From Salinilacihabitans rarus (GTDB lineage: Archaea > Halobacteriota > Halobacteria > Halobacteriales > Natrialbaceae), in contig NZ_CP100762.1 of NCBI RefSeq assembly GCF_024296665.1, positions 1,240,001 through 1,304,000 of the forward strand: 64,000 nt of DNA, read 5' to 3'. The notes under the pieces are model-generated. The model worked only from the letters and a program-made list of their open reading frames with translations, was not told where the DNA came from and searched no databases. Both the position numbers and the translations under genes were made by a program. Below, in pieces: positions 30,516 to 32,290 of the stretch. How positions within the stretch are numbered: position 1 is the first letter of the stretch; every line of letters begins with the position of its first letter.

Positions 30516-31007
30516 GTGCGGTTCAAACTCGTCCCCGCCGCGCCGCCGGACCTCTCGGTCGTCGAGACCGTCCGGGAGGCGGTGCCGCTGGTCCCCGGCA
30601 GCGAGGACGACTGTTGTGCCCGGATCGTCCGGCGGACCCCCGTCGACGCCCGGGACGAGGCGGCGACGTGGCTGACGTTCCTCCGGGCGCTCGACCTCGC
30701 TGCCGAGGGCCCGGCGGGCTTTCGCCGGCGGCGTGACGCCGACCCCGCCCCCGGGGACCTCCGGCGGGCGTTCCGCGAACGGGTCTACGGCGCCGAGGCG
30801 GTCCTCGAAATCCTCGACGCCGCCGCCGACCCCCTCCCGGCCGACGACGTCTACGAGCGGTTCCGAGGGGAGATCCCCGCCTACGAACGCGAGAAGTACG
30901 GCGACCGGCTCGACGAGGTCTGGCGCGAACGCGTCCGCCGGCTGCTCGACTGGGCGGTCCTGCTGGACCTCGCCGAGCGGACGGACGGCGGCTATCGTCG
31001 CGGCTGA
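30516..31007 (+). CDS. Conserved haloarchaeal protein downstream of mch
   Basis: This 163-residue soluble protein starts with GTG one base after the mch stop, so it is probably co-translated. It has two parts: residues 1-75 (FKLVPAAPPDLSVVETVREAVPLVPGSEDDCCARIV) and a helical C-terminus (DDVYERFRGEIPAYEREKYGDRLDEVWRERVRRLLDWAVLLDLAERTDGGYRR) that resembles a winged-helix-like element. No catalytic motif is recognised. Its tight link to mch is the only functional hint. Confidence 0.75.
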   Translation: MRFKLVPAAPPDLSVVETVREAVPLVPGSEDDCCARIVRRTPVDARDEAATWLTFLRALDLAAEGPAGFRRRRDADPAPGDLRRAFRERVYGAEAVLEILDAAADPLPADDVYERFRGEIPAYEREKYGDRLDEVWRERVRRLLDWAVLLDLAERTDGGYRRG

Positions 31008-31046: not shown

Positions 31047-31731
31047 ATGGGCGACCGAATCGACGCCGTCCTGTTCGACCTCGACGACACCCTCTGTGCC
31101 TACCGGCGGCCGCCGGGGGAGGTGCTCTCGGCGGCGTTCTCGCGGGCGGACGTCGACCCGTTCTTCTCGGTCGGCGACTACTACGCCCGGTACGACGACT
31201 ACCTGGAGGCGAGTTCCGGGATCGACGACCTCCGGCGGCGGTGTTTCGGCGACCTCGCGGTCGAGTCGGGGTACGACCGCGAGGCGGGCCTCGCCGTCGC
31301 CGACGCCTACTCGCGCGAGCCCCGTCGAGCGGGACGTCGTCCCGCTCGACGGGGCTCGCCGGGCCCTCGACGCGCTGGCCGTCGAGTATCGCCTCGGACT
31401 CGTGACCAACGGCGACCCCCGGATGCAACGCACGAAGCTCTCGGCCGTCGGCCTCGCCGACGCGTTCGAGGCGGTCGTCTTCGCGGGGTTCGACGGTCCG
31501 GCCAAGCCCGCGCCCGACCCGTTCGAGCGCGCGCTGGAGGCGCTCGCCGCGACGCCGGAGCGCGCAGTCCACGTGGGGAACTCGCTCGCGACCGACGTCG
31601 CCGGCGCGCGGGCGGCCGGGGTCGCCGCGGCGTGGGTTCCCGCCGACCCCGCCGCGCAGTCGCCACCCGATCCCGCCCCGACGTACGTCCTCGACTCGCT
31701 CGCGGACCTGACGGAGCCGCCGTGGGCGTGA
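31047..31731 (+). pseudogene. HAD-superfamily hydrolase gene with a +1 frameshift
   Basis: The first ~90 codons read as a normal HAD phosphatase (FDLDDTLCAYRRPP, nucleophile Asp in D-x-D-x-T). The frame then changes at about 31319-31323, in a run of four C. From there the next frame continues the same protein: VERDVVPLDGARRALDALAVEYRLGLVTNGDPR (motif II), the motif III Lys in GPAKPAPDPF, and HVGNSLATDVAGARAAG. One extra C explains the break. The break lies inside a perfect palindrome (31315-31359). It may be a real mutation or a sequencing error at a hairpin. A related intact HAD gene is at 40229. Confidence 0.85.
31315..31359. repeat. Perfect palindrome with 22-bp arms at the frameshift
   Basis: The arms 31315-31336 and 31338-31359 are exact reverse complements around a single central base at 31337. 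The left arm starts GCGAGCCCCGTC and the right arm ends GACGGGGCTCGC. It lies within a coding sequence and contains the C-run of the frameshift. Confidence 0.95.
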
Positions 31732-31732
31732 G

Positions 31733-32290
31733 CTACGCCTCCGCCCACTCGTAGCCGTCGCCGCTCTCGCGGATCGTCCCCTCGTCGAGCCACCGCTCGC
31801 GGACGCGTTCGAGCCCCCGCTCGCCCGCGCCGTGGACGAGGAGTCGCTCGGCGTCGAGCGCCGACCGCGTGGTCCGGTCGGGATTCGGCTCGGCCGTCTC
31901 GTCGAACGGCCGGCCGTCGGGCCGGCGGGCGACCCAGACGACGCTCTGGAGGACGACGCGGTCGGCCCCGACCGCGTCCGCCGCGTCGAGCAGGGTCCGC
32001 GTCCCCTCGATCCGGACCCGGTCGTTTCGCTCCCGGTCCGCGGCCGAGGGCCTGCGGCCGGTCGGAATCGCCGTCGCGGCGTGGACCACGACGTCGGCCC
32101 CCTCGGCGGCCTCCCGCAGGCCGGCGGGTTCGAGGACGTCGCCGTAGCGGGGTCGCCCGCCGCGCTCGCGGACCCGCTCGGCGCCCGCGTCGTCGCGCAC
32201 GAGGCCGACGACGTCGTGACCGCGGTCGGCGAGTCGGTCGACGAGTCGGCGGCCGAGCACGCCGGTCGAGCCTGCGACGAAGACGATCAT
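31733..32290 (-). CDS. Shortened NAD(P)-binding SDR/epimerase-like protein
   Basis: The 185-residue product has a good N-terminal Rossmann fold (VFVAGSTGVLGRRLVDRLADRGHDVVGLVRD, G-x2-G-x2-G) and the next strands (GDVLEPAGLREAAEGADVVVHAATAIP). Extended SDRs are usually about 300 residues, and the substrate domain is missing. Around residue 150 the sequence jumps from ALDAERLLVHGAGERG to a short basic-acidic tail. The Tyr-x3-Lys pair is not apparent. It looks like an internally deleted gene, so catalysis is doubtful. It is convergent with the HAD gene and preceded directly by a 20-bp palindrome. Confidence 0.65.
   Translation of the reverse strand: MIVFVAGSTGVLGRRLVDRLADRGHDVVGLVRDDAGAERVRERGGRPRYGDVLEPAGLREAAEGADVVVHAATAIPTGRRPSAADRERNDRVRIEGTRTLLDAADAVGADRVVLQSVVWVARRPDGRPFDETAEPNPDRTTRSALDAERLLVHGAGERGLERVRERWLDEGTIRESGDGYEWAEA

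What the first reader, a model, noticed from the sequence alone, without database searches (positions are those of the whole stretch)
31315..31359. Frameshift located inside a perfect palindrome in a HAD hydrolase gene
Seen: one extra C in a CCCC run at about 31319-31323 breaks a HAD reading frame that otherwise continues in the next frame. The break is within two exact 22-bp arms separated by one base. Known: template switching at quasi-palindromes can turn an imperfect inverted repeat into a perfect one and cause frameshifts; hairpins also cause sequencing errors. Inference: this may be a fresh quasi-palindrome mutation, or programmed +1 frameshifting on a proline CCC run with a strong downstream structure.
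Basis: partly seen in the sequence, partly recalled or inferred. Interest (0 to 1): 0.6.

Follow-up and report, generated by a model that had tools for sequence, protein, structure and literature searches.

The report
Hairpin mutation breaks haloarchaeal hydrolase gene
In one salt-loving archaeon, a copying slip in which one side of a small DNA stretch was apparently remade as the mirror image of the other side has knocked a hydrolase gene out of reading frame; this is a known kind of mutation, seen here in an unusually long and clean example.

Summary
A perfect inverted repeat (22-bp arms, 1-nt spacer, 31315-31359) lies inside a HAD-family hydrolase gene (31047-31731, +), and the frame breaks inside its left arm. 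It is the longest hairpin in 464 kb sampled from this genome; composition-matched simulations never exceeded 18 bp. It is also the only gene-internal frame break found in that sample, so the assembly is not generally indel-prone. All 46 aligned relatives, from other genera, read through in one frame, and none of those checked has the palindrome. Conserved gene order shows that many are positional orthologs.

The right arm encodes the conserved V-x-P-L-x-G-A-R segment. The left arm encodes the residues fitting the family worst, including Pro at a site that is Arg in 46 of 46 relatives. Best reading: a replication template switch copied the right arm into the left arm, replacing several bases and adding a net +1. 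Programmed frameshifting is not supported. A hairpin-specific sequencing or assembly error cannot be excluded without reads. Known mutation class; modest interest.

The parts
31047..31731 (+). HAD-superfamily hydrolase gene, broken by a net +1 shift; 5' part in frame of 31047, 3' part in frame of 31324
   Evidence: coding-frame model
31315..31336 (+). left arm of perfect inverted repeat, inferred to be rewritten from the right arm; contains the frame break
31337..31337 (+). 1-nt spacer (T)
31338..31359 (+). right arm; encodes the family-conserved V-x-P-L-x-G-A-R segment, inferred template
31320..31323 (+).
31323..31754 (+). out-of-frame tail read if translation does not shift (ORF 31047-31754, 235 aa); loses HAD motifs II-IV

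Best explanation
A mutation by intra- or inter-strand template switching at a short hairpin. While copying this gene, the polymerase stalled near a short natural palindrome (GGGACG-T-CGTCCC in the present sequence, codons for D-V-V-P). The growing end then used the already copied right arm as its template, and afterwards returned to the proper template near 31314/31315. Result: the left arm became an exact reverse complement of the right arm over 22 bp. Several bases were replaced and the net length changed by +1, putting the catalytic motifs II-IV of the HAD hydrolase out of frame and probably inactivating the gene. Shown: the perfect palindrome, the frame break, intact frame and no palindrome in relatives, left arm discordant and right arm largely concordant with the family. 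Inferred: the direction right to left, the single-step rewrite, loss of function, recency.
For: Perfect 22-bp arms with a 1-nt spacer, beyond 282 matched simulations (max 18). 46 aligned relatives in other genera all keep one frame with no internal stop across this point and the same segment length; the best perfect inverted repeat in any ortholog gene is 13 bp. Upstream mch and a 163-aa gene, and downstream a GTP-binding-protein gene, lie next to the HAD gene in many relatives, so these are positional orthologs. Protein positions 89-96 (left arm) are the worst-fitting segment of the whole protein: P92 against R in 46/46, V93 against D in 41/46, E94 against Q/H in 40/46. The right arm carries the invariant G102 and the conserved V97, L100 and A103. 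Left-arm DNA identity to relatives is 0.47 against 0.67 for the gene, and to the closest relative L043 0.33 against 0.71. Only gene-internal frame break in 464 kb. Precedent: yeast REG2, where a 5-bp arm became a perfect 16-bp arm in one event changing five residues (PMC8604942).
Against: Closest relatives are only about 71-75% identical in DNA and in another genus, so the ancestral left arm is not seen directly. When every relative is tested the same way, the left arm's poor fit is notable but not unique: DNA z = -2.4, second lowest of 47; worst 8-residue segment ranks sixth of 47. Two right-arm residues (V98, D101) are also unusual, so the history may involve more than one event. No reads were available to exclude a technical error.
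Confidence: 0.72

Rival explanations
1. Sequencing or assembly error at a strong hairpin: the real DNA has an intact frame and the consensus carries an extra base, or a fold-back copy of one arm made during library preparation.
For: Perfect hairpin predicted at -55.7 kcal/mol as RNA, z -6.5, the kind of place where polymerases and base callers fail. No reads are available here. The rest of the gene looks intact.
Against: Only one gene-internal frame break in 464 kb of this one-contig genome, so indel errors are not common. Removing one base does not restore the family-conserved Arg-Asp, so a lone extra base would not explain the odd left arm. A fold-back artefact would have to dominate the reads.
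Confidence: 0.15
2. Classical single-base quasi-palindrome correction or C-run slippage: the ancestor already had a 21-pair imperfect palindrome and one C was added (CCC to CCCC).
For: With one C fewer both arms would still be complementary apart from one bulge, and the frame would be open. This is the textbook quasi-palindrome frameshift (Ripley 1982, cited in PMC7202029).
Against: Needs a nearly perfect 22-bp palindrome beforehand. No other one-defect inverted repeat of at least 16 pairs occurs in 464 kb, and about 0.01 of at least 21 pairs is expected (an upper bound, since nested spacers are counted more than once). The shift is not located at CCCC by the family profile.
Confidence: 0.08
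3. Programmed +1 ribosomal frameshift at the CCC-C codon with the hairpin as stimulator, making a full-length enzyme from the shifted gene.
For: CCC-C is a known +1-prone site in bacteria when tRNA-Pro lacks m1G37 (for example PMC4519876, listed), and a strong hairpin is present.
Against: All 46 relatives encode the protein in one frame without the hairpin. The shift site is not conserved and the shifted protein would lack an invariant Arg. The CCC-C itself lies inside the stem, not upstream of it with a spacer.
Confidence: 0.02
4. The palindrome is a functional DNA or RNA element (binding site, terminator or mobile repeat) that happens to interrupt the gene.
For: Very strong and symmetrical hairpin.
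Against: Single copy: the own-genome search finds this repeat only at this place, on both strands, and none of the other fetched loci holds its core. No length change beyond +1 relative to orthologs, so nothing was inserted. No run of T follows it.
Confidence: 0.03

Closest known systems
Quasi-palindrome-associated template-switch mutation (E. coli thyA and lacZ QP hotspots; Ripley model)
   Same: Inverted repeat made perfect, with a frame-changing length difference inside one arm and a short spacer; one arm as template for the other (PMC7202029).
   Different: Here the prior state is not observed. The evidence points to several changed bases rather than one, in a haloarchaeon, with a 22-bp arm.
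Multinucleotide template-switch events in yeast genes (REG2 and others, PMC8604942)
   Same: Short-arm hairpin in a coding gene converted to a longer perfect inverted repeat, replacing several neighbouring residues.
   Different: The yeast REG2 event replaced residues without breaking the frame; this one breaks it, and no strain-level ancestor is available.
HAD-superfamily hydrolases (PF00702; near NCBIfam TIGR02253)
   Same: C-terminal part matches PF00702 and TIGR01549 above the curated cut-offs; motifs DLDDT, TNG, K and GNSLATD present across the two frames.
   Different: Gene is split by the shift; matches to named equivalogs are below their cut-offs, so no substrate can be named.

Membership tests
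Quasi-palindrome / template-switch mutation | Derived sequence forms a more perfect inverted repeat | tested here: met
   22/22 perfect arms here; no inverted repeat over 13 bp in any ortholog gene
Quasi-palindrome / template-switch mutation | Change in one arm is exactly templated by the other arm | tested here: inconclusive
   Left arm is the exact reverse complement and fits the family badly while the right arm fits better; but no close relative shows the prior left arm, and the statistical support is moderate
Quasi-palindrome / template-switch mutation | Ancestral imperfect palindrome seen in a close relative | not testable with these tools
   No other genome of the genus is held; nearest relatives are in other genera of the family
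Programmed +1 frameshifting | Split frame and shift site conserved among orthologs | tested here: not met
   46 of 46 aligned relatives in one frame
Programmed +1 frameshifting | Full-length product made | not testable with these tools
   Needs proteomics or a reporter assay
HAD-superfamily hydrolase | Match to HAD profile and catalytic motifs | tested here: met
   PF00702 E 1.2e-19 for the 3' part; DLDDT in the 5' part
Sequencing error | Reads disagree with consensus | not testable with these tools
   No reads held; indirect evidence only

The most novel reading that the evidence does not exclude
A lineage-specific +1 recoding site has arisen in which the new perfect hairpin and the CCC-C codon let a fraction of ribosomes make full-length hydrolase, so that the gene is not dead but translationally controlled.
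Probability: 0.02. Interest if true: 0.65.

Novelty: new member of a known kind. Interest (0 to 1): 0.3.

Why it matters
If confirmed by reads, it is a clear natural case of template-switch mutagenesis inactivating a gene in a haloarchaeon, a group for which my literature searches found no description of the process (open-access papers only). The size of the rewritten arm argues that such switches can create long hairpins in one step rather than only tidy existing ones. It would not change the understanding of the mechanism.

Tried and rejected
Same-genus search returned only the window's own genome, so no close relative could be compared. I expected that skipping one C would give a family-like protein; it does not fully. 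I expected the left arm to be a unique outlier; leave-one-out controls show it is notable but within the range of other family members, so the multi-base rewrite is stated as likely, not shown. The idea of a genome with many such palindromic breaks was rejected: only one in the sample. A mobile or repeated element was rejected. Programmed frameshifting was rejected on conservation grounds.

Full report
What is there. The window lies in a one-contig, 3.62-Mb, GC-rich genome. Its relatives by protein search are haloarchaea. At 31047-31731 on the + strand is a HAD-superfamily hydrolase gene. The first 92 codons are read in the frame of 31047, and the remaining 135 in the frame of 31324. The 3' part matches PF00702 with E 1.2e-19. 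The frame changes inside a perfect inverted repeat, 31315-31336 and 31338-31359, 22 bp each with one T between. Read without a shift, the gene would give a 235-aa protein ending at 31754 that loses HAD motifs II-IV.

Is it more than chance? In 464 kb of this genome (the window plus twenty 20-kb stretches spread over the chromosome), the next longest perfect inverted repeats with a spacer of at most 10 are 17 and 15 bp. In 282 simulations that keep frame-dependent composition, the longest was 18. A coding-frame model run on the same sample gave 16 frame switches within a strand. Fifteen lie within 21 nt of the stop of the first frame and are ordinary adjacent genes. Only the one at 31320 lies far (432 nt) from a stop. 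So the genome is not generally frame-broken, and the one break found coincides with the longest hairpin.

Relatives. No second genome of the genus is held. In the family, orthologs of about 70-75% DNA identity were found, with further haloarchaeal ones in named genomes. Forty-six were aligned. All keep one frame without stops across this point and have the same segment length as the window protein when a single base is skipped. The longest perfect inverted repeat inside any ortholog gene is 13 bp. Gene order mch - 163-aa gene - HAD - GTP-binding protein is shared with many of them, so these are the same gene.

Which arm changed? The right arm encodes V-V-P-L-D-G-A-R, containing the invariant Gly and the conserved Val, Leu and Ala of the family. 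The left arm encodes S-R-E-P-V-E-R-D, where relatives have x-x-E-R-D-Q/H-x-x. The Pro replaces an Arg present in 46 of 46 relatives, and the Val replaces an Asp present in 41 of 46. This is the worst-fitting four-, six- and eight-residue stretch of the protein. At the DNA level the left arm is 47% identical to relatives on average against 67% for the gene; against the closest relative it is 33% against 71%. When every relative is treated the same way the window is second lowest of 47 (z -2.4), and other members have equally odd segments elsewhere, so this is supportive, not proof. Val98 and Asp101 in the right arm are also unusual, so more than one event is possible.

Single base or whole arm? 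About 0.01 with at least 21 pairs is expected, and that figure is inflated by counting nested spacers. Skipping one C opens the frame but does not give the conserved residues. Scoring every possible skipped base gives a plateau over about 31310-31335 with the best at 31327. A template switch that copies the whole arm from a short starting hairpin explains the perfect symmetry, the odd left arm and the +1 in one step. The same kind of event is described in yeast REG2, where a 5-bp arm became a perfect 16-bp arm with five changed residues (PMC8604942). The general mechanism at quasi-palindromes is established in E. coli (PMC7202029).

Other readings. Programmed +1 frameshifting is disfavoured: no relative has the break or the hairpin. 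CCC-C can shift when tRNA-Pro lacks m1G37 (established work in bacteria, for example PMC4519876, listed), so a trickle of full-length protein cannot be excluded. A sequencing or assembly error at a hairpin of -55.7 kcal/mol remains possible because no reads could be examined; the clean rest of the sample argues against a careless consensus but not against a hairpin-specific fault. A mobile or regulatory repeat is disfavoured: single copy and no insertion beyond +1.

Verdict. Observation confirmed; template-switch interpretation probably right in kind but likely larger than the one-C event proposed; programmed frameshift not supported. Known class of mutation, tidy example.

Noticed in passing
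31733-32290 (-): The convergent neighbour, an SDR/epimerase-family gene (185 aa), lacks about 140 internal residues that its relatives in L048 and L051 have; two adjacent genes at this locus thus look damaged in this lineage.
   Followed up: partly
L103:17648-17681 and L103:11927-11956: Two further perfect spacerless palindromes (17- and 15-bp arms) inside uninterrupted coding frames of this genome, rarer than simulations give (about 0.01 and 0.14 expected in 464 kb).
   Followed up: partly
G080:C1:3196373-3196687 (-): The HAD match in this family member holds one in-frame TAG, so this gene may be broken there too, or the match crosses a gene end.
   Followed up: no
30516-31004 (+): A 163-aa protein between mch and the HAD gene, conserved in position across many relatives, matches no Pfam or NCBIfam family.
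   Followed up: no
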